This document shows, piece by piece, positions 33,003-59,600 of a stretch of DNA of 64,000 nt. Each line of letters begins with the position of its first letter. The stretch's first letter is position 1. The notes under the pieces are model-generated. The model was not told the DNA's origin, did not search any database, and worked only from the letters and a program-made list of their open reading frames with translations. The position numbers were made by a program, and so were the translations under genes. The DNA is from Solirubrobacter pauli. Its GTDB lineage: Bacteria; Actinomycetota; Thermoleophilia; Solirubrobacterales; Solirubrobacteraceae. The stretch spans positions 357,426-421,425 of the forward strand of contig NZ_RBIL01000001.1 in assembly GCF_003633755.1 (NCBI RefSeq). Direction: 5' to 3'.

Positions 33003-33670
33003 GCCCGCTGAACGGGTACATCTCGACGGCGCTGACCAACGCCGACACGCAGGCACGCCTCGCGATCGACGCGACCGTCAGCGCGATCCGCGCCGCCGCG
33101 GGCGACGCGCTCGACGTCTACTTCCCCGGCGACTTCACCGACCCGGTCCGCGACGCGCACGTCTCCCCCGCGGACGTCTTCCGGATCGACCGCGAGCGCG
33201 TCAAGGGCGCCGACGTGATCTTCCTGCTCGCGCACACGCCCAGCATCGGCGTCGGGCAGGAGCTGACGATGGCGCTCGAGTCGCTGACGCCGATCGTGCT
33301 GATCGCGCCGCGCGGCACGCGCGTGAGCCGAATGGCCCTCGGCGTGCCGACCGACCTGGTCGAGGTGCGCTACGACGGCGACGAGGACCTGCGGGCGCAG
33401 CTGCGCGCCGCGATCGCCGCGCTCCGCCCGCGGCTGGAAGAGCGCCGCGCCGCGCTCGCGGCCCTGGACGCGAACGTGACCGGCGCGAAGATCCGCGCGC
33501 ACCGTGAGCAGCGGCAGCTCACCCGCGCGGAGCTCGCGGACCGAATCGGCCTGACCGAGGTCGGGGTCGCGCACCTCGAGGAGGCCTCGGACCGCCAGGG
33601 CGATCCGAGCCTCACGCAACTGCGGCGGATCGCCGCGGTGCTCGGGGTGCGCGCCGCCGATCTCGTTTAG
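32999..33670 (+). CDS. Deoxyribosyltransferase-like protein fused to an HTH, 223 aa
   Basis: Residues 1-135 resemble nucleoside 2-deoxyribosyltransferases: [10 protein letters not shown], a strand, and [20 protein letters not shown] with the Glu of the active site. Residues 160-223 are a Cro/C1-type helix-turn-helix ([20 protein letters not shown]). Such a fusion could sense a nucleotide and regulate its own operon. ATGA overlap with the deaminase; its stop overlaps the convergent phosphodiesterase stop. Confidence 0.75.
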
Positions 33671-35952
33671 CGCGCGCGCACCGTCACGGCCTTCGAGCGG
33701 GTCCCGCTCTTGAGCGTCAGGACGACCTTCGGCGCCTTCTTGAGGCGCTTCGCGGACTTCAGGCGGAACGTGGCCTTGCCCGTGCCGGCGACCCGCTTGG
33801 CGGCCTTGGTGCCCTGCAGGCGGGCGCTGCCCTTGAAGGTCGAGGTCGGGACGACGGTCTTGATCGTGCAGACGATCGACTTGCCGTCGTTGGACAGGTC
33901 GCAGGTGACCTTCACGTCGAGCGTGTCGCCCTTCTCGCCCTTGGGGCCCTGCGGGCCGGCGGGGCCGACCGGACCGAGCGGGCCGGCAGCACCGACCGGG
34001 CCGACGGGACCGGGCGCACCGTCGTTGCCCGCGGGACCGGCGGGACCCGCCGGACCGGCCGGGCCCTGGATCGGCGCGCCCGGCACGCTCGGGCCGTCGC
34101 CCTCGGCGGCCCGCAGCGCGGTCGCGTCCTCGACCAGGCGCTCAGCGACGGCCTCACCCAGCTCGGACTCGTGCGCGCGCACGGCGTCCAGCAGCCGCTT
34201 CCAGGAGTGCGACAACGCCATCTCGAGCAGCAGCACGCGCTGGGCGTTCGGGATCCCGCGCTTGGTGGCGACGAGCGAGGCGACGCCGGTGACGGTCGGC
34301 GCGACCGTGAACGTCGCCGTCGCCGCGGCCGTCTCGCCCGCGGACGAGCGCGCGGAGAGCTCGACCGTGTGCGTGCCGAGCGCCAGGTCGTCGGCGCGGA
34401 CGACCGCGCCCTCGGCGACGGGCTTGCCGTCCAGCGTCGCCGTCGCGACCGAGTCGGACGTGTCGAACGCGAGCGTCAGCACGTCCCCGCGCGTGAGCAC
34501 CGCGCCGTCGACCGGGGCCGCGATCACCGCGCGCGGCGGGTTCGGCACGCCGCCCTGGCGGTAGCGCGCGTTCCAGCCATCGAGCGTGCCGGGCTTGTTG
34601 GTGATGATGCCGTCGACGCCGGCGTCGCGCATCTGCAGCCACGTGTCCGGGCTGTCGACCGTGTACGGCATGACCGCGATGCCGGCGGCGTTGAGGTCGG
34701 CCACCACCGAGCGGCGCGCGGAGAGCGCGTTCCAGTCCGGGTTGTAGGCGATCGCGTGCAGGCCGCGTGCGACCGCGACGGGGTCGGCGTCGATCGACCC
34801 GCGCAGCAGGCCGAGGCGCAGCTGCGGCTCGATCGCGTAGGCGTCGCGCAGCACCTGCTCGTCGAAGCTCTGCAGCAGGACGCGGCCGAGCATCCCGCGC
34901 GCCTTGATCATGCCGATGATCGTCTCCACCTGCGCGCGGGTCTCGGGACCCTTGATCTCGAGCAGCAGGTCGGCGGCCTGGCGCTGGACCTGATCGAGCG
35001 CGGCGGAGAGGCGCGGCAGCGGCTCGCCCTTGTGGACCGGCGAGAACCACTCGCCCGCCTCGAGCGTGTCCAGCACGGACGAGGTGAGCGTGTTGAGCGC
35101 GCCCGTGCCGGCGGTCGTGCGGTCGACGGTGTCGTCGTGCAGGACGTACGGGATGCCGTCGGCGCTGGTGGACACGTCGATCTCGACCCAGTCGGCGCCC
35201 GCGCGCGACCCGGCGTCCATGGCCACGAGCGTGTTCTCGGGCGTGATCGCCGAGTAGCCGCGGTGGGCGATGATCGCGGGCGTCGTCGTGCGGTCGTCCG
35301 GGCGGACGAGCGGCTCGGCGTCCAGCGGCGTGACGACCACGTCGTCGAACGAGACGACCGAGCCGTTGACGACGAAGCCCAGGCGGCCGTCGGCGGAGCG
35401 CTGGAGCACCTTCGCCTCCTGCACCAGCACGCCGTTGAAGAACCAGCGCGCCTTGGCGCCGAAGACCTCGAGCTTCACGCGCACGTCCTTGCCGGTGCCG
35501 GCGGCCGTCGGCGCGGGCGCGGTGGCGGGCACGTTCCAGGCGTTGGCGGTCGTGCGCTGGGCGAGCTCGGTGCCGTTGGCGGCGGTGGTGTTGGAGCGCA
35601 TCGCGGCGTGCCACCACGGCGTCGAGCCGTCCAGCGGCATGTCCAGGCCGAGCGCGGTCCAGCGCGTGCCGTCGTTGTTGACCAGCGACTCGAAGCGGAC
35701 GGTCGCCTCGAAGCGGTAGTTCTCCAGGCGCGGGCCGAACGTCAGCCGGGAGATCTGCGCGGACGACGTCGACCGGCCGACGAGCCGCCCGTCGGTGACC
35801 GACCACGTGCCTTCACGCGCAGTCCAGCCGGCGGGCAGGGCGCCGCCGTCGAAGTGCTCGTCGATGACCGGGTCGGCGGCGAGTGCGGAGGAGGGCAGCG
35901 TCATGGCGCAGGCCAGCGCGGCGAGGAGCGCGCGAGATGATCGTTTCGACAC
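33667..35952 (-). CDS. Secreted glycerophosphodiester phosphodiesterase with collagen-like repeat, 761 aa
   Basis: Signal peptide [20 protein letters not shown]; a laminin-G-like sandwich at residues 30-200; a GDPD TIM barrel at 230-480 with [13 protein letters not shown] (His, Arg, Glu of the site), [10 protein letters not shown] and HDDTVDRTT; an Ig-like strand region; a G-x-y run near 645-690 ([20 protein letters not shown]); and a basic C-terminal domain. It hydrolyses glycerophosphodiesters outside the cell. GTG start at 35952. Confidence 0.85.
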
Positions 35953-36072
35953 GGCGGGCGAAGCTATTCCCGCCGCGGCGCCGACTCGTGAAGAGGTTGT
36001 GAGTCGTACGAGTGTCCATCCCGGCTCAGAAGCACCGGTTTCTTGCCGACAACTCAGCTCAACAGGGTTGAC

Positions 36073-36148
36073 AAAGGCAAACCCGCCGTGAGGCGGGGAC
36101 GCAAAGCTTGAGGTCTCCACGGAGGGAGATAGCTCGGCCGCCGACTTT
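36073..36148 (+). promoter_or_regulatory. Cyclic-di-GMP-I (GEMM) riboswitch
   Basis: GCAAACC (36077-36083), then CGCC-GTGA-GGCG, then GGGACGCAAAGC (36096-36107) match the GEMM-I aptamer's conserved core and first hairpin. The second part, GAGGTCTCC...AGCTCGGCC, fits the receptor helix. It lies 40 bases upstream of the RBS hairpin of the subtilase. The direction of the switch cannot be told from sequence alone. Confidence 0.85.
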
Positions 36149-36187: not shown

Positions 36188-37951
36188 ATGTCCCATGAAA
36201 CGAAGCAGCGCTGGCGTGGCCGGCTGGCTGTGGCGGCGTTCGCCACGGTCGTGCCGTTCGCGGTGGTCAGCACCGCGGCGCACGCGGCCCCGACGGCGCA
36301 GGCGCGCCTCGCGACGGCTGCGGCGAAGACGCCGAACCGCACCGTCACGGCGATCGTCCAGTTCAAGCCGACGCTCAGCGAGAAGGCGGCGACGAAGCTC
36401 GTCCGCGCCCACGGCGGCAAGGTCACGAGCAAGGTCCCGTTCATCCACGGCCTGGCCGTCAAGCTGCCGGCCAAGCAGGCGAAGGTCCTCGCGAAGGACG
36501 CCAAGGTCCTCGGCCTCACGCTCAACGCGCGCGTGCACAGCACGGGCCTGGACGCCAACCAGCTCGCGACGAGCTACCCGAAGACCACGCGCGCCGACAA
36601 GCTCTGGCAGCGCGGGATCACGGGCGCCGGCATCGGCGTCGGCGTGATCGACACGGGCATCGCGGGCGACCAGCCCGACTTCAAGGACGCGGCGGGCGGC
36701 TCCCGCATCGTCGCCAACGTGATCACCTCGCCGGGCGCCAAGACGCCGGGCGACGGCTTCGGCCACGGCACGCACGTCGCGGGCATCATCGCCGGCGACT
36801 CGAACCATCGCCCGGCGGGCGACCCGTTCAAGGGCAAGTACGTCGGCATGGCGCCGGGCGCGAACCTGATCGCGATCAAGGCCTCCGACGACGCCGGCAA
36901 CTCGACCGTGCTCGACGTGATCAACGGCATCGCCTTCGCCGTCGACCACAAGGACCGCTTCAACCTGCGCGTCCTGAACCTGTCGCTGGCCGCCGACACG
37001 CCGCAGTCCTACAAGACCGACCCGCTCGACGCGGCCGTCGAGCACGCGTGGCAGAAGGGCATCGTCGTCGTGGTCGCCTCGGGCAACCGCGGCAGCGCGG
37101 CCGACGCCGTCCAGTACGCGCCCGCCAACGACCCGTTCGTGATCTCGGTCGGCGGCGTCGACGAGAGCGCCAACAGCGGCCGCGGCGGCCGCGCCGACTG
37201 GTCCAGCAACGGCGTCACGCAGGACGGCCTCTCCAAGCCCGACGTCGTCGCGCCCGGCGCGCACATGGTGTCCGTGCTCGCCCCGAGCAGCGCGTTCCAG
37301 ATCATGTGCCCGAACTGCGCGCTCGGCGGCCAGTACTTCAAGGCCGGTGGCACGTCGATGGCCGCCCCGGTCGTCGCCGGCGCCGCCGCGCTGCTCCTGC
37401 AGGCCCGCCCGACCCTGACCCCGAACCAGGTCAAGGCGCTGCTGATGGGCACCGACAAGCCGGTCGCCGGCAACAAGGTGGGCACCGGCATGATCGACGT
37501 CGAGCGCGCGCTCTACACGCCGACGCAAGGCGTCCCGGCCGTCAACCTCAACGTCGTCCCGAATCTGCTGTTCGCGCTCGCCACCCGCGCGGGCAACGAC
37601 CTCAGCACCTGGACCCGCTCGACCTGGAGCGCGGCGCCGAGCCAGCTCAGCGCCTCGTGGGCCAAGTCGACCTGGTCGTGCGGCACCTGCCTCGCGGCGG
37701 GCGGCGCGATCGACCCGCAGCGCTCCACCTGGAGCCGCTCCACGTGGTCGAGCGCCGGCGAGGACGCCAGCGCCGAGGCCGCGCAGTACGCCGAGCAGGC
37801 CGAGGAGGCCGAGGACACCGGGTCGCTCGCGCCGATCCCCGCCGACGCCGTGGTCCCGACCGACGAGGCGCCCGCGCCCGAGCCGGCCGCCGCCGCGCCG
37901 CCGGCCCCCGAGACGGCCGCCGCCACGCCGACGCCGGAGGCGGTCCGATGA
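36188..37951 (+). CDS. Secreted subtilase (S8) with tryptophan-repeat tail, 587 aa
   Basis: Signal peptide to about residue 35; an I9-type propeptide (RTVTAIVQFKPTLSEKAATK); the S8 domain with Asp near 155 (GVIDTGIAGD), His near 193 (GHGTHVAGI) and Ser near 390 (GGTSMAAP). The tail (residues 472-522) repeats S/R-S-T-W (STWTRSTWSA, AKSTWS, RSTWSRSTWSS) with a C-x2-C pair (CGTC), followed by an acidic Pro/Ala-rich end. ATG 36188 follows AAGGAGG in a hairpin loop. It is probably controlled by the cyclic-di-GMP riboswitch upstream, and its stop overlaps a 27-aa frame. Confidence 0.9.
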   Translation: MSHETKQRWRGRLAVAAFATVVPFAVVSTAAHAAPTAQARLATAAAKTPNRTVTAIVQFKPTLSEKAATKLVRAHGGKVTSKVPFIHGLAVKLPAKQAKVLAKDAKVLGLTLNARVHSTGLDANQLATSYPKTTRADKLWQRGITGAGIGVGVIDTGIAGDQPDFKDAAGGSRIVANVITSPGAKTPGDGFGHGTHVAGIIAGDSNHRPAGDPFKGKYVGMAPGANLIAIKASDDAGNSTVLDVINGIAFAVDHKDRFNLRVLNLSLAADTPQSYKTDPLDAAVEHAWQKGIVVVVASGNRGSAADAVQYAPANDPFVISVGGVDESANSGRGGRADWSSNGVTQDGLSKPDVVAPGAHMVSVLAPSSAFQIMCPNCALGGQYFKAGGTSMAAPVVAGAAALLLQARPTLTPNQVKALLMGTDKPVAGNKVGTGMIDVERALYTPTQGVPAVNLNVVPNLLFALATRAGNDLSTWTRSTWSAAPSQLSASWAKSTWSCGTCLAAGGAIDPQRSTWSRSTWSSAGEDASAEAAQYAEQAEEAEDTGSLAPIPADAVVPTDEAPAPEPAAAAPPAPETAAATPTPEAVR

Positions 37952-38031
37952 GCCGCACCATGAACCGAGCGAGCTGGCAGGCCTGCAACCGCGCCAGCTG
38001 GGGACGCAAGCAGCGCCCGAACGAGAGATGA
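37948..38031 (+). CDS. Micropeptide with two NRASW repeats, 27 aa
   Basis: The ATG overlaps the protease stop (ATGA). The peptide has two N-R-A-S-W blocks flanking QAC and ends WGRKQRPNER. The same R-[AS]-[ST]-W motif fills the protease tail, and the other protease has an equivalent overlapping micropeptide, so the frame is likely real. Function unknown: a precursor peptide, an adaptor, or a tail made by re-initiation. Confidence 0.55.
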   Translation: MSRTMNRASWQACNRASWGRKQRPNER

Positions 38032-38040
38032 ACCGCCTGA

Positions 38041-38068
38041 GGGGCGGGCGGCGCAGGCCGCCCGCCCC
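38041..38068 (+). terminator. Strong G/C hairpin after the protease unit
   Basis: GGGGCGGGCGGC, loop GCAG, GCCGCCCGCCCC: a twelve-base-pair perfect stem ten bases after the micropeptide stop. It has no T-run, as is common in actinobacteria. Confidence 0.65.
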
Positions 38069-38090
38069 TCGCGCTATCGTCGCGCCCGTC

Positions 38091-53623: not shown

Positions 53624-55261
53624 GTGTTGAGATCCACGAGCCGTGCGCGACGGAGCGCAATAGCGGCGCTGATAGCCGTAGCGGTACCCCTGACCGTGGC
53701 CACGGCGGCCGACGCCGCCCCGACCGCAGCCGCGCGCCTGGCCGCCACGGCGAAGCAGTCCCCGAACCGCAGCGTCACCGCGATCGTCCAGTTCAAGGTC
53801 CCCGAGGCCAAGGCGAAGCGGATCGTCAAGGCGCACAAGGGCACGATCACCGACAAGCTCCCGGCCGTCCAGGGCTTCGCCGTCCGGCTGCCGGCCAAGC
53901 AGGCCAAGGCGCTCAAGAGCGCCAAGGGCGTCCTGAACGTCACGCTGAACGCGAAGGTCAACTCGACGAGCTTCTCGCCCGAGCTGCTGGCGACGAACTT
54001 CCCGAAGACGACCGGCGCCGACCAGGCGTGGGCCGCGGGCCTGACCGGCAAGGGCGTCGGCGTCGCGATCATCGACTCGGGCATCAACGGCGACATCGCC
54101 GACTTCAAGAACGCCGACGGCACGTCGCGCGTCACGAACGTCATCTCGAACCCCGGCGCCACGGGCGCGGGCGACCCTGTCGGCCACGGCACGCACGTCG
54201 CGGGCATCGTCGGCGGCAACTCGGCGTTCCGCACCGACGGGCTCGCCGGCAAGTACACCGGCATCGCGCCGGAGGCCGACCTCGTCGCCATCAAGACCTC
54301 CGACGACGCGGGCAACTCGACCGTCCTCGACGTGATCAACGCGCTGCAGTTCGTCGTCGACCACAAGGACGAGCTGAACATCAAGGTCGTGAACCTGTCC
54401 GTGTCCGCCGACACGCCGGGCTCCTACCGGACCGACCCGCTCAACGCCGCCGTCGAGTTCGCGTGGCACGCGGGCGTGGTGGTCGTGTCCGCCGTCGGCA
54501 ACCGCGGCGACGCGGCCGACGCCGCGCAGTACGCGCCGGGCAACGACCCGTACGTGATCTCGGTCGGCGCGACCGACGAGCGGGAGACCGCGGCTCCGGC
54601 CGACGACACGGTCGCCGACTTCTCCAGCCGCGGCCGGACCATCGACGGCTTCAACAAGCCGGACGTGTTCGCGCCGGGCGCGAAGATCGTCGCCCCGCTC
54701 GCGGCCGGCTCGGCGTTCTCGCAGCTCGCGCCCGCCACCAGCATCTTCGAGGGCGGCCAGTACATCCGCATCGGCGGCACGTCGATGGCCTCCCCCGTCG
54801 TCGCGGGCGCCGCCGCGCTGCTCCTGCAGGCCCGCCCGGACCTGAACCCGGACCAGGTCAAGGCGCTGCTGACCGCGAACGTCACGACGACCGCCGACGG
54901 CGTCGGCCAGGTCAACATCCCGGCCGCGCTCGCCGCGCAGGTCTCCACGGCCGCCAACGCCGGGCTGACTCCGAACCTGTCGGTCGCCACCGCGCTCACG
55001 CTGGCCGGCATCGACCCGACGCGCGCCACCTGGACCAAGGCGACCTGGACCAAGGCCACCTGGACGAAGGCGACCTGGACTCGCGCGACCTGGACCAAGG
55101 CCACCTGGACCGCCGGCGCCAGCGGCACGACCGCCCCGTGGGCGCGTGCCACCTGGACCTGCGCGGCCTGCGAGAGCGCGGGCGACGGCGTCGACCCGAC
55201 CAAGTCGACCTGGAGCCGCTCGACCTGGTCCCGCAGCACGTGGTCGAGCATCGAGTGGTGA
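53624..55261 (+). CDS. Secreted subtilase (S8) with tryptophan-repeat tail, 545 aa
   Basis: Paralog of the 36188 gene. Signal peptide, I9 propeptide (SVTAIVQFKVPEAKAKRIVK), S8 triad in IIDSGINGD, GHGTHVAGI and GGTSMASP. The tail is longer: six tandem [KR]-A-T-W-T units encoded by 15-bp DNA repeats (55023-55110), then RATWTCAAC and three [KR]-S-T-W-S units. GTG 53624 follows GGAGG in a hairpin loop. The stop overlaps a 12-aa frame. The GGDEF-EAL gene follows. Confidence 0.9.
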   Translation: MLRSTSRARRSAIAALIAVAVPLTVATAADAAPTAAARLAATAKQSPNRSVTAIVQFKVPEAKAKRIVKAHKGTITDKLPAVQGFAVRLPAKQAKALKSAKGVLNVTLNAKVNSTSFSPELLATNFPKTTGADQAWAAGLTGKGVGVAIIDSGINGDIADFKNADGTSRVTNVISNPGATGAGDPVGHGTHVAGIVGGNSAFRTDGLAGKYTGIAPEADLVAIKTSDDAGNSTVLDVINALQFVVDHKDELNIKVVNLSVSADTPGSYRTDPLNAAVEFAWHAGVVVVSAVGNRGDAADAAQYAPGNDPYVISVGATDERETAAPADDTVADFSSRGRTIDGFNKPDVFAPGAKIVAPLAAGSAFSQLAPATSIFEGGQYIRIGGTSMASPVVAGAAALLLQARPDLNPDQVKALLTANVTTTADGVGQVNIPAALAAQVSTAANAGLTPNLSVATALTLAGIDPTRATWTKATWTKATWTKATWTRATWTKATWTAGASGTTAPWARATWTCAACESAGDGVDPTKSTWSRSTWSRSTWSSIEW

Positions 55262-55296
55262 GCGCGGACGAGCGCGCCACCTGGGGCGGGAAGTAG
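55258..55296 (+). CDS. Micropeptide with an RATWG motif, 12 aa
   Basis: GTG overlaps the protease stop (GTGA) and opens MSADERATWGGK. It repeats the arrangement after the first protease, where the peptide ends in RASWGRK. Without that parallel a frame this short would not be called. Confidence 0.4.
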   Translation: MSADERATWGGK

Positions 55297-55332: not shown

Positions 55333-55373
55333 GGCGCTTAACCCCTCAAATCGCTGGGTTCGCGGTCGATCAC

Positions 55374-57890
55374 ATGGACGTGGGACTGCGCGTCATCCGC
55401 AAGATCGAGCCGATCTGGGGCCTCATCTTCGCCCTCTCGGTGATCTCCGCCGTGCTCTACTTCGCGTTCGTCCGCGACTTCGAGGCGATGCAGACGCCGG
55501 AGATCGCCTGGTACGTGATCGCCGTGCTCGTGCTCGCGACCGAGCGCTTCCCCGTCGAGCTCGAGTTCCGCCGCAGCTCGCACTCGTTCTCGCTGACGGA
55601 CATCCCGCTCACCGTCGCGCTGATCTTCACCACCGGCACGCACGCCTTCTGGGCGATCGTCGGCGGCTCGCTGATCGCGCTGCTGCTGCGCCGGCTGCCG
55701 CTGATCAAGTTCTGCTTCAACGTCGCGCAGATCGCGCTCGTGGCGAACGTGATGCTCGTGCTCGTCCACCTCGCCTCCGGGATCGACGACGACTTCGGCC
55801 CGCTCGCGTGGCTGGCCGTGCTGGCCGCGACCCAGCTCGGTGGCGTGCTCACGATCGCGCAGATCATCGCCGCGATCGTGTTGACCGAGGGCAGCGTCTC
55901 CCGCGAGCAGGTCCGCCAGATGTTCGGCATGGACTTCGTGGTGACGCTCACCGGCACGGCGATGGCGCTCGTCTCGTCGATCCTCTGGATCGAGCGGCCC
56001 GCGGCCACGCCGTTGCTGGCGCTGCCGATCCTGGTGGCGTTCGGCGGCTACCGCGCCTACGTGCACGAGCGCCAGGGCCACGAGAAGGTCAAGTTCCTCT
56101 ACGAGGCCAACCGGACGCTGAGCGAGTCGCCCGAGGTGGCGATCGCGCTGGAGGGCCTGCTCGAGCGGGCCCTCGGCGCGTTCCGGGCCGAGCAGGCCGA
56201 GGTGATCCTGTTCGCCGGCGACGGCGGCGCGCCGCTGCGCACCGGGCTCGGCCCCGGCAACGCGCGCGAGGCGATGGCGCTGATGGACCATGACGCGGCG
56301 GTCGCGCTCCGCACGCTCGCGGAGGAGTCCGAGGACGCGATCGCGCTCACCGACCCCTTCCCCGCCTCGATCGCCGCGTACCTGGCGGGCCGCGGGGTCC
56401 GCCACGGCATGCTCGGCGTGCTGCGCGGCGAGGACCGCGTGATCGGCACGCTCATGCTGGCCAACCGCTACGGGCTCTCCCGCGGCTTCACGCGCGGCGA
56501 CCGCGCGCTGTTCGAGACGCTCGCCGCGAACGCGTCCGCCGCGCTCCAGTTCGACCGCCTCGAGCAGGCCGTCACCGAGCTGCGCGACCTGCAGGACCAG
56601 CTGACGCACCAGGCCCACCACGACCCGCTGACCGGGCTCGCGAACCGCTCGCTGTTCTCCCAGCGGGTGCGCGAGGCGCTCGAGTCGGGCGGGGCGGACA
56701 AGGTCGCGGTCATGTTCATCGACCTCGACGACTTCAAGGGCGTCAACGACACGCTCGGGCACGCGATCGGCGACGAGCTGCTGCGCGGCGTCGCCTCGCG
56801 GCTCGTGCGCTCGGTGCGCAAGGAGGACGTGGTCGCGCGCCTCGGCGGCGACGAGTTCGCCGTGCTGGTGCAGCGCGACGAGGACGTCGAGCAGGGCGCC
56901 GCCGAGTTGGCCGAGCGCACGCTCGCCGCGTTCCTGGCGCCGGTCCAGGCCGGCGAGAAGCCGCTGAACGTGTCGCTGTCGATCGGCATCGCCGCCTGCC
57001 AGCACAACCGCACCGCCACGGACGAGCTCCTGCGCGACGCCGACGTCGCCATGTACGAGGCCAAAGAGGGCGGCAAGCGCCGCTTCGCCGTCTTCACGCC
57101 CGCGATGCGCGACTCGATCGTGCGCCGCCACGGCCTCAAGGAGGAGCTGGCGCGCGCCCTCAAGCAGCGCGAGCTGATGGTCCAGTACCAGCCGATCGTG
57201 GACATCGGCACCGGCGAGACGATCTCGGTCGAGGCGCTCGTGCGCTGGAACCACGCCGACCGCGGCCGGATCCCGCCCGCCGAGTTCATCCCGCTGGCGG
57301 AGGACACCGGCCTGATCGTGCCGCTCGGCCGCTACGTGCTCGAGGAGGCGTGCCAGTCGGTCGTCGCCCGCTCCGACACCCTCCAGGTGCAGGTCAACCT
57401 GAGCGCGATCGAGCTCGAGCACCCGGACCTCATCCCGACGATCCAGGACGTGCTGCGGCGCACCGGCATCCCGCCGGGCCGGCTCGTGCTCGAGGTGACC
57501 GAGACGCTGCTCGTCAAGGACGCCGAGCGCGGCGCCGAGACGCTGCAGCAGCTGCGCGACCTCGGCGTGCAGCTCGCGCTCGACGACTTCGGCACGGGCT
57601 ACAGCTCGCTCTCCTACCTGCGCAACCTGCCGCTCGACACGCTCAAGATCGCGCGGGAGTTCGTCGAGGGCCTGGCCTTCAGCGACCACGACGCGGCGTT
57701 CGTGCGCCTGATCGTCGGCCTCGCCAAGACGGTCGGCCTGAAGGTCGTCGCCGAGGGCATCGAGACCCGCGAGCAGCTCGACATGCTGCGCGAGATCGGC
57801 TGCGACCTCGGCCAGGGCTACTACTTCGCCGCGCCGATGGACGTCGACGCCGACTGGCACTCCGCACCCGTCGCGGCGGCGCTCGCCTAG
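55374..57890 (+). CDS. GGDEF-EAL cyclic-di-GMP synthase/phosphodiesterase, 838 aa
   Basis: N-terminal membrane sensor with about seven helices (residues 12-230), a GAF domain (250-400), then GGDEF at 415-570 and EAL at 585-830. The synthase site RLGGDEFAVLV is intact, and RKED five residues upstream fits an inhibitory I-site. The EAL part has SVEALVRW, VQVNLSAIEL, LEVTETLL, DDFGTGYSS, DTLKIAREF and AEGIET, so all metal and catalytic positions are present. It may therefore both make and break cyclic-di-GMP. Confidence 0.95.
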   Translation: MDVGLRVIRKIEPIWGLIFALSVISAVLYFAFVRDFEAMQTPEIAWYVIAVLVLATERFPVELEFRRSSHSFSLTDIPLTVALIFTTGTHAFWAIVGGSLIALLLRRLPLIKFCFNVAQIALVANVMLVLVHLASGIDDDFGPLAWLAVLAATQLGGVLTIAQIIAAIVLTEGSVSREQVRQMFGMDFVVTLTGTAMALVSSILWIERPAATPLLALPILVAFGGYRAYVHERQGHEKVKFLYEANRTLSESPEVAIALEGLLERALGAFRAEQAEVILFAGDGGAPLRTGLGPGNAREAMALMDHDAAVALRTLAEESEDAIALTDPFPASIAAYLAGRGVRHGMLGVLRGEDRVIGTLMLANRYGLSRGFTRGDRALFETLAANASAALQFDRLEQAVTELRDLQDQLTHQAHHDPLTGLANRSLFSQRVREALESGGADKVAVMFIDLDDFKGVNDTLGHAIGDELLRGVASRLVRSVRKEDVVARLGGDEFAVLVQRDEDVEQGAAELAERTLAAFLAPVQAGEKPLNVSLSIGIAACQHNRTATDELLRDADVAMYEAKEGGKRRFAVFTPAMRDSIVRRHGLKEELARALKQRELMVQYQPIVDIGTGETISVEALVRWNHADRGRIPPAEFIPLAEDTGLIVPLGRYVLEEACQSVVARSDTLQVQVNLSAIELEHPDLIPTIQDVLRRTGIPPGRLVLEVTETLLVKDAERGAETLQQLRDLGVQLALDDFGTGYSSLSYLRNLPLDTLKIAREFVEGLAFSDHDAAFVRLIVGLAKTVGLKVVAEGIETREQLDMLREIGCDLGQGYYFAAPMDVDADWHSAPVAAALA

Positions 57891-58958: not shown

Positions 58959-59600
58959 GTGGAGCGCACGAAGTACCCACGCACCTGGCACCTGCCCGAC
59001 TCACCGAACCGCGGCGCGGACGGCGATCACGCCTACGCCGACTACGCGACCTTCACCGGGCGCGAGGTGGTCGTGACCGAGAAGCTCGACGGCGAGAACA
59101 CGACGATCTACGCCGACGGGTACACGCACGCCCGCTCGGTCTCCTCGGGCTACCACGCCACCCGCACGTGGGTGCGGGCGCTGGCCGGGCGCGTGGGGTA
59201 CGAGCTGCCCGCGGGCTGGCGCATCTGCGGCGAGAACACGTACGGCCGGCACTCGATCGAGTACGACCGGCTGCCGTCCTACTTCCAGCTGTTCGCGGTC
59301 TACGACGCGGAGGACCGCTGCCTGAGCTGGGACGACACCGCGGCGTGGGCGGAGCGCCTCCAGGTGGACCTCGTGCCGCTGCTCTACCGCGGCCTGTTCG
59401 ACCGGGTTCGAGTCCTGTCGCTGCTCGCAGGCGCGTCGGCGTTCGGGCCCGAGCGCGAGGGCGTCGTGGTGCGCTGGGCGGACGCGTTCGCGGTCGCCGA
59501 GCACCAGCGCGCGGTGGGCAAGCTCGTCCGCAAGGACCACGTCAAGACCGACCAGCACTGGATGAGCGGTGCGGTCGTGCCGAACGGGCTGGCGTCGTGA
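58959..59600 (+). CDS. RNA ligase family protein, 213 aa
   Basis: Nucleotidyltransferase-type RNA ligase: EKLDGENTTIYADG is motif I with the adenylated Lys (K-x-D-G), GWRICGENTYGRHSIEYDRL motif III region, EGVVVRW motif IV and LVRKDHVKTDQHWM motif V. Compact length, similar to T4 Rnl2/DraRnl-like ligases. GTG 58959. Its stop overlaps the HD-kinase gene by four bases, so the two work together in RNA repair. Confidence 0.85.
   Translation: MERTKYPRTWHLPDSPNRGADGDHAYADYATFTGREVVVTEKLDGENTTIYADGYTHARSVSSGYHATRTWVRALAGRVGYELPAGWRICGENTYGRHSIEYDRLPSYFQLFAVYDAEDRCLSWDDTAAWAERLQVDLVPLLYRGLFDRVRVLSLLAGASAFGPEREGVVVRWADAFAVAEHQRAVGKLVRKDHVKTDQHWMSGAVVPNGLAS

What the first reader, a model, noticed from the sequence alone, without database searches (positions are those of the whole stretch)
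36188..38031. Subtilase with a Ser-Thr-Trp repeat tail, coupled to a micropeptide with the same motif
The tail repeats [RK]-S-T-W, with a C-x2-C pair, and the overlapping 27-aa frame contains two N-R-A-S-W blocks. Sharing an unusual motif between a protease and a coupled tiny ORF suggests a common partner or processing event. I know of no described system of this type.
Basis: partly seen in the sequence, partly recalled or inferred. Interest (0 to 1): 0.85.

Follow-up and report, generated by a model that had tools for sequence, protein, structure and literature searches.

The report
Subtilase with coupled tail-motif micropeptide
[quoted passage not shown] the tiny gene is kept in every species examined and in the protease's sister copies, so it is very probably real, but what it does is unknown.

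Summary
The window holds a secreted S8 subtilase (36188-37951) with a Trp-repeat tail, and an ATGA-overlapping 27-codon frame (37948-38031) with two NRASW blocks. A frame in the same position carrying RA[ST]WG[RG]K follows the orthologue in all 7 Solirubrobacter genomes held, and a 58%-identical paralogue in 5 of 5 (one in this window: 55258-55296, VSADERATWGGK). A DNA pattern for this heptapeptide matches nowhere else in those 7 genomes. Core codons vary mainly at third positions, the stop codon switches between TAG, TAA and TGA, and the orthologue group keeps a Shine-Dalgarno sequence. The frame is therefore very probably translated, by termination-reinitiation. Two NRASW blocks are not typical; one is.

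Outside the genus, seven tail-bearing subtilases in six genomes lack the frame, so it is a genus-level addition to an older tail. The wider tail family is tied to c-di-GMP: riboswitches upstream, or GGDEF-EAL genes next door.

Function is inferred only: most likely a cytosolic trans-acting copy of the tail repeat that binds the tail or its partner before export. Frameshift extension (no slippery sites) and tail-remnant readings fit worse. I found no description of such a system in the paper library searched.

The parts
36067..36146 (+). c-di-GMP-I-GGC riboswitch aptamer upstream of subtilase A
   Evidence: Rfam RF03167, 66.7 bits against a gathering score of 59; a c-di-GMP-I class riboswitch precedes all A orthologues scanned
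36188..37951 (+). Subtilase A (peptidase S8), 587 aa: signal peptide, propeptide, catalytic domain (D155, H193, S390), Trp-repeat tail, acidic/PA-rich end
   Evidence: PF00082, 5.9e-51; triad residues invariant in the alignment
37601..37753 (+). DNA of the Trp-repeat tail of subtilase A ([RK]STW units and C-x2-C)
   Evidence: read directly; tail profile A1
37936..37940 (+). GGAGG, Shine-Dalgarno-like, 7 nt before the micro-ORF start; GGAGG or GAGG kept in group A
37948..38031 (+). Micro-ORF A, 27 aa, MSRTMNRASWQACNRASWGRKQRPNER, ATGA overlap with subtilase stop
38038..38071 (+). 15-bp GC-rich hairpin a few nt after the micro-ORF, probable transcript end
   Evidence: RNA fold; no U-run, so not scored as a terminator by the scan
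53627..55261 (+). Subtilase B (paralogue, 58% identical over the aligned part), tail of [KR]ATW and [RK]STW units ending SSIEW; start codon not certain
55258..55296 (+). Micro-ORF B, VSADERATWGGK, GTGA overlap with subtilase B stop; could start one codon earlier (GTG 55255)
55371..57890 (+). GGDEF-EAL gene next to subtilase B
   Evidence: PF00990 2e-47, PF00563 3.4e-76

Best explanation
A c-di-GMP-linked secreted subtilase is translated; its ribosome terminates at NTGA and reinitiates on the overlapping start codon, making a 12-27-residue micropeptide with one or two copies of the tail's Trp-repeat unit (R-A-[ST]-W-G). Shown: the anatomy, the conservation across species and paralogues, and coding-type evolution of the core. 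Inferred from anatomy: translation by termination-reinitiation. Inferred only: because the peptide has no signal sequence but mimics the tail, it most likely acts in the cytosol in step with the protease, binding either the tail or the tail's cytosolic partner until export, as a cap or decoy. My own split: translated coupled micropeptide about 0.85; this particular role about 0.25.
For: Motif at the 3' end of 7/7 orthologues and 5/5 paralogues and nowhere else in 7 genomes. Core codon differences: group A 15 at third, 5 at first, 0 at second positions; group B 5 at third only. In group B the stop stays in place while switching among TAG, TGA and TAA; group A uses all three too. GGAGG/GAGG 7 nt upstream in group A. 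Start overlaps stop as ATGA/GTGA in all A and B loci. The peptide unit resembles the tail unit (RATW in both tail and peptide of B). Overlapping start/stop pairs are coupled and enriched for subunits of heteromeric complexes (PMC10666635).
Against: No expression data. The peptide is very short and its tail partner is exported, so a lasting complex needs an explanation. Group B lacks a good Shine-Dalgarno sequence. Tail-bearing subtilases outside the genus do without it. G001 and G006 are nearly identical, so independent sequences are 6 (A) and 4 (B). No structural support: AlphaFold models of both subtilases were poor.
Confidence: 0.45

Rival explanations
1. Programmed -1 frameshift near the stop makes a minor longer subtilase, so the motif is a C-terminal extension of the tail in the same exported protein.
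For: The frame is always -1 to the subtilase and is open for 50 or more codons upstream of the overlap; it would place all motif copies in one compartment; the third copy, C (L059), overlaps as CTGA rather than ATGA/GTGA.
Against: No X-XXY-YYZ slippery site in the last 150 nt of any A or B gene; one only in C. The last sense codons (CGA, CAG, CCG, TGG) cannot re-pair one base back. Group A keeps a well-placed Shine-Dalgarno sequence, and C has an in-frame GTG three codons upstream.
Confidence: 0.12
2. The micro-ORF acts in cis: its translation (Trp, Arg/Lys and terminal Pro codons) slows ribosomes at the transcript end and affects the hairpin, mRNA decay or subtilase release; the peptide is only a nascent-chain signal.
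For: A strong hairpin follows the micro-ORF; most A peptides end in RP-stop.
Against: Distance from stop to hairpin varies among species, B peptides end in GGK, and the shared core is tail-like.
Confidence: 0.2
3. Remnant of a formerly longer repeat tail, cut off by an old frameshift and decaying.
For: Same repeat unit as the tail; subtilases outside the genus end in or just after the repeats themselves.
Against: Retained in two paralogue groups with third-position-biased change and kept stops; outside tails end like the present tails, so no missing end is evident.
Confidence: 0.06
4. Precursor of an exported or modified signalling peptide, matured by the adjacent protease.
For: Subtilases process pro-peptides in other bacteria (own knowledge); c-di-GMP-linked regulation.
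Against: No signal sequence; no exporter or modifying enzyme dedicated to it recognised among the neighbours scanned (only a subset of genes was scanned).
Confidence: 0.1

Closest known systems
Peptidase S8 (subtilase) family, PF00082
   Same: Catalytic domain, propeptide, secretion signal
   Different: Short Trp-repeat tail with C-x1-2-C and the coupled micro-ORF are not part of the family
Mycosin, TIGR03921
   Same: Best NCBIfam hit to the catalytic domain (167.6 bits)
   Different: Below cut-off (278.75 bits); Trp-repeat tail instead
Gene pairs coupled by termination-reinitiation (PMC6728339, PMC10666635)
   Same: 4-nt ATGA/GTGA overlap, Shine-Dalgarno sequence in group A
   Different: Second frame is a 12-27 aa peptide repeating a motif of the first protein's tail
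c-di-GMP-I riboswitch-controlled genes
   Same: c-di-GMP-I-GGC aptamer upstream of subtilase A
   Different: No paper in the library searched holds the terms c-di-GMP, riboswitch, subtilase and Actinobacteria together

Membership tests
Peptidase S8 (PF00082) | Profile match above the gathering score | tested here: met
   173.9 bits against 21.8
Peptidase S8 (PF00082) | Asp-His-Ser triad in DTG, GHGTH and GTSMA contexts | tested here: met
   D155, H193, S390 invariant in five sequences
Peptidase S8 (PF00082) | Proteolytic activity | not testable with these tools
   needs the expressed enzyme
Mycosin (TIGR03921) | Score above the equivalog cut-off | tested here: not met
   167.6 bits against 278.75
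c-di-GMP-I-GGC riboswitch (RF03167) | Covariance model match above the gathering score | tested here: met
   66.7 bits against 59
c-di-GMP-I-GGC riboswitch (RF03167) | Ligand binding | not testable with these tools
   needs in-line probing or a reporter
Termination-reinitiation gene pair | Short start/stop overlap (such as ATGA or GTGA) | tested here: met
   4-nt overlap available in all A and B loci
Termination-reinitiation gene pair | Translation of the second frame depends on the first | not testable with these tools
   needs reporter fusions
-1 programmed frameshift | Slippery heptamer before the shift | tested here: not met
   none in the last 150 nt of any A or B gene

The most novel reading that the evidence does not exclude
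A genus-wide system in which a secreted, c-di-GMP-linked protease is made together with a dedicated 12-27-residue peptide that reproduces one repeat of the protease's own tail and acts in trans on the tail or its receptor.
Probability: 0.3. Interest if true: 0.8.

Novelty: new variant of a known kind. Interest (0 to 1): 0.62.

Why it matters
Very short proteins are hard to recognise and usually go unannotated. Here a 12-residue coding frame can be defended from sequence alone because it is repeated in two paralogue groups, tied to a motif of its neighbour and absent elsewhere in the genomes. If it works in trans, it would be a compact example of a protein coupled to a copy of its own repeat. 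The wider Trp-tail subtilase family appears to be a c-di-GMP-linked group of secreted proteases in Thermoleophilia that I could not find described.

Tried and rejected
Structure prediction of subtilases A and B with five-row alignments gave mean pLDDT 38-39, so no fold of the tail was obtained and no fold search was run. Slippery-site scan for frameshifting: negative in A and B. A sigma-28-like promoter motif common to subtilase A, the GGDEF-EAL gene and an MCP gene was looked for: with 14 nt spacing no signal; with 15 nt spacing it is present at those three places, but a loose genome count shows only modest excess in this genome (98 against 52) and little in most relatives, so it is left as a lead. 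Tree: places A and B apart from a clade holding C and the outside sequences, but branches are long and C's position is unsure. Literature searches for Trp-repeat subtilases, Solirubrobacter subtilisin and c-di-GMP riboswitch plus subtilase found nothing relevant.

Full report
OBSERVATION. The window carries an S8 subtilase at 36188-37951 with a Trp-repeat tail and a 27-codon frame at 37948-38031 that overlaps its stop as ATGA. The tail has four [RK]STW units, other W units and a C-x2-C pair; the tiny frame reads MSRTMNRASWQACNRASWGRKQRPNER. Pfam gives PF00082 at 5.9e-51 and nothing for the tail or the tiny frame. The best NCBIfam hit, mycosin, is below its cut-off.

CONSERVATION IN THE GENUS. 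Scanning genome contigs brought orthologues from Solirubrobacter phytolaccae, S. deserti, S. taibaiensis and S. sp. CPCC 204708. Each is followed by a -1-frame tiny ORF starting on the overlapping GTG: VSNAMNRATWRSCSRASWGRKQRP, VRNRASWGRKARP, VIRTPNRASWGRKQRP. Two more distant orthologues (71% and 62% identity) have VMRHRASWGRKQRPGT and VSLRRRASWGGKRRP. One RASWG[RG]K block is general; the double block is not.

A SECOND PAIR IN THE SAME WINDOW. A paralogous subtilase (58% identity) ends at 55261 with ...STWSRSTWSSIEW, and a GTGA-overlapping frame reads VSADERATWGGK. Its orthologues in four other genomes read VSLDERATWGGK, VTSDERATWGGK and VTSEERATWGGK (the last in two near-identical genomes). 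A third subtilase type in one genome (C, locus L059) has (VER)LTRASWGGGRREG... in the same position; a fourth type (D, locus L060), with a TASRW-repeat tail, instead overlaps a downstream gene with GGDEF-like sequence.

CHANCE. A DNA pattern for RA[ST]WG[RG]K matches 12 times in the 7 genus genomes, always at these places, with no reversed-control match. In 232 genomes of the order there is one further match (RACWGRK), no more than the reversed control gives. Of 69 coding-like ORFs ending in [AG]TGA in the DNA fetched up to that point, the 10 with a [RK][AST][ST]W tiny frame are all tail-bearing subtilases.

CODING-TYPE EVOLUTION. In the seven-codon core, pairwise differences in group A fall at third positions 15 times, first 5 (all the R/G exchange), second 0; in group B at third positions only, 5 times. 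In B the stop codon switches among TAG, TAA and TGA at an unchanged place. This argues for selection on the peptide rather than on an RNA or DNA site.

HOW IT IS MADE. Group A keeps GGAGG or GAGG 7 nt before the start; group B starts at ATGGTGA or GTGGTGA without a good Shine-Dalgarno sequence. No slippery heptamer is found in the last 150 nt of A or B genes. Termination-reinitiation is therefore favoured over frameshifting; such overlaps are known to couple translation and are enriched for subunits of complexes (PMC10666635). A 15-bp hairpin follows the micro-ORF in the window, so the micro-ORF is probably the last frame of its transcript; that is inference.

OUTSIDE THE GENUS. A profile of the tail (A1) finds it in 10 of 399 genomes of the class and 3 of 396 sampled from the phylum, all in the class. 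Seven tail-bearing subtilase loci outside the genus (G078, G033, G015, G384, G126, two in G136) have no tail-motif tiny frame. The tail is thus older than the micro-ORF. The profile search scores only a limited number of candidates per genome, so tail counts are lower bounds.

c-di-GMP CONTEXT. Subtilase A has a c-di-GMP-I-GGC riboswitch, as do three orthologues, with c-di-GMP-I in two more and before the outside loci in G126 and G136. GGDEF-EAL genes flank B (55371-57890) and the loci in G126, G136, G384, C and D (motif search only for these). With 54 GGDEF matches in this 7.1 Mb genome and 7-53 in three others counted, five of nine roughly independent units having one adjacent has a nominal probability of about 0.001. 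This supports a functional tie of the Trp-tail subtilases to c-di-GMP signalling.

FUNCTION. Nothing here tests function. The peptide has no signal sequence, is made in step with the protease, and copies one tail unit. The reading I prefer is a cytosolic trans copy that binds the tail or its partner before export. A cis effect on the ribosome or transcript end is the main rival. The structure predictions were too poor to help.

VERDICT. A real, conserved, overlapping micropeptide gene tied by motif to the tail of its neighbour, restricted to one genus as far as the held genomes show; mechanism open. The literature check covered only the open library available here.

Noticed in passing
window 55371-57890; L124, L125, L128, L131, L132: Trp-tail subtilases repeatedly lie next to GGDEF-EAL genes; several others, including A, have a c-di-GMP-I riboswitch upstream.
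   Followed up: partly
L060 (G003:C85), also L132: A subtilase with an eight-fold TASRW tail overlaps (TGATG) a downstream gene with GGDEF-like sequence.
   Followed up: partly
window 36025, 55345, 61744: Sigma-28-like motif CTCAR-N15-G[CT]CGA[TC] before the riboswitch of subtilase A, the GGDEF-EAL gene and an MCP gene; genome-wide excess is modest.
   Followed up: partly
L125 (G136:C47): Two tandem Trp-tail subtilases downstream of a GGDEF-EAL gene, with a c-di-GMP-I riboswitch before the first.
   Followed up: no
window 33667-36120: Divergent gene encoding a glycerophosphodiester phosphodiesterase with a sugar-hydrolase-like domain and collagen-like repeats.
   Followed up: no
L032 (G078): A Trp-tail subtilase whose stop overlaps (GTGA) the start of a different, longer downstream frame without the tail motif.
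   Followed up: no
window 58959-59600: RNA ligase domain gene (PF09414) close to the subtilase B and GGDEF-EAL genes.
   Followed up: no
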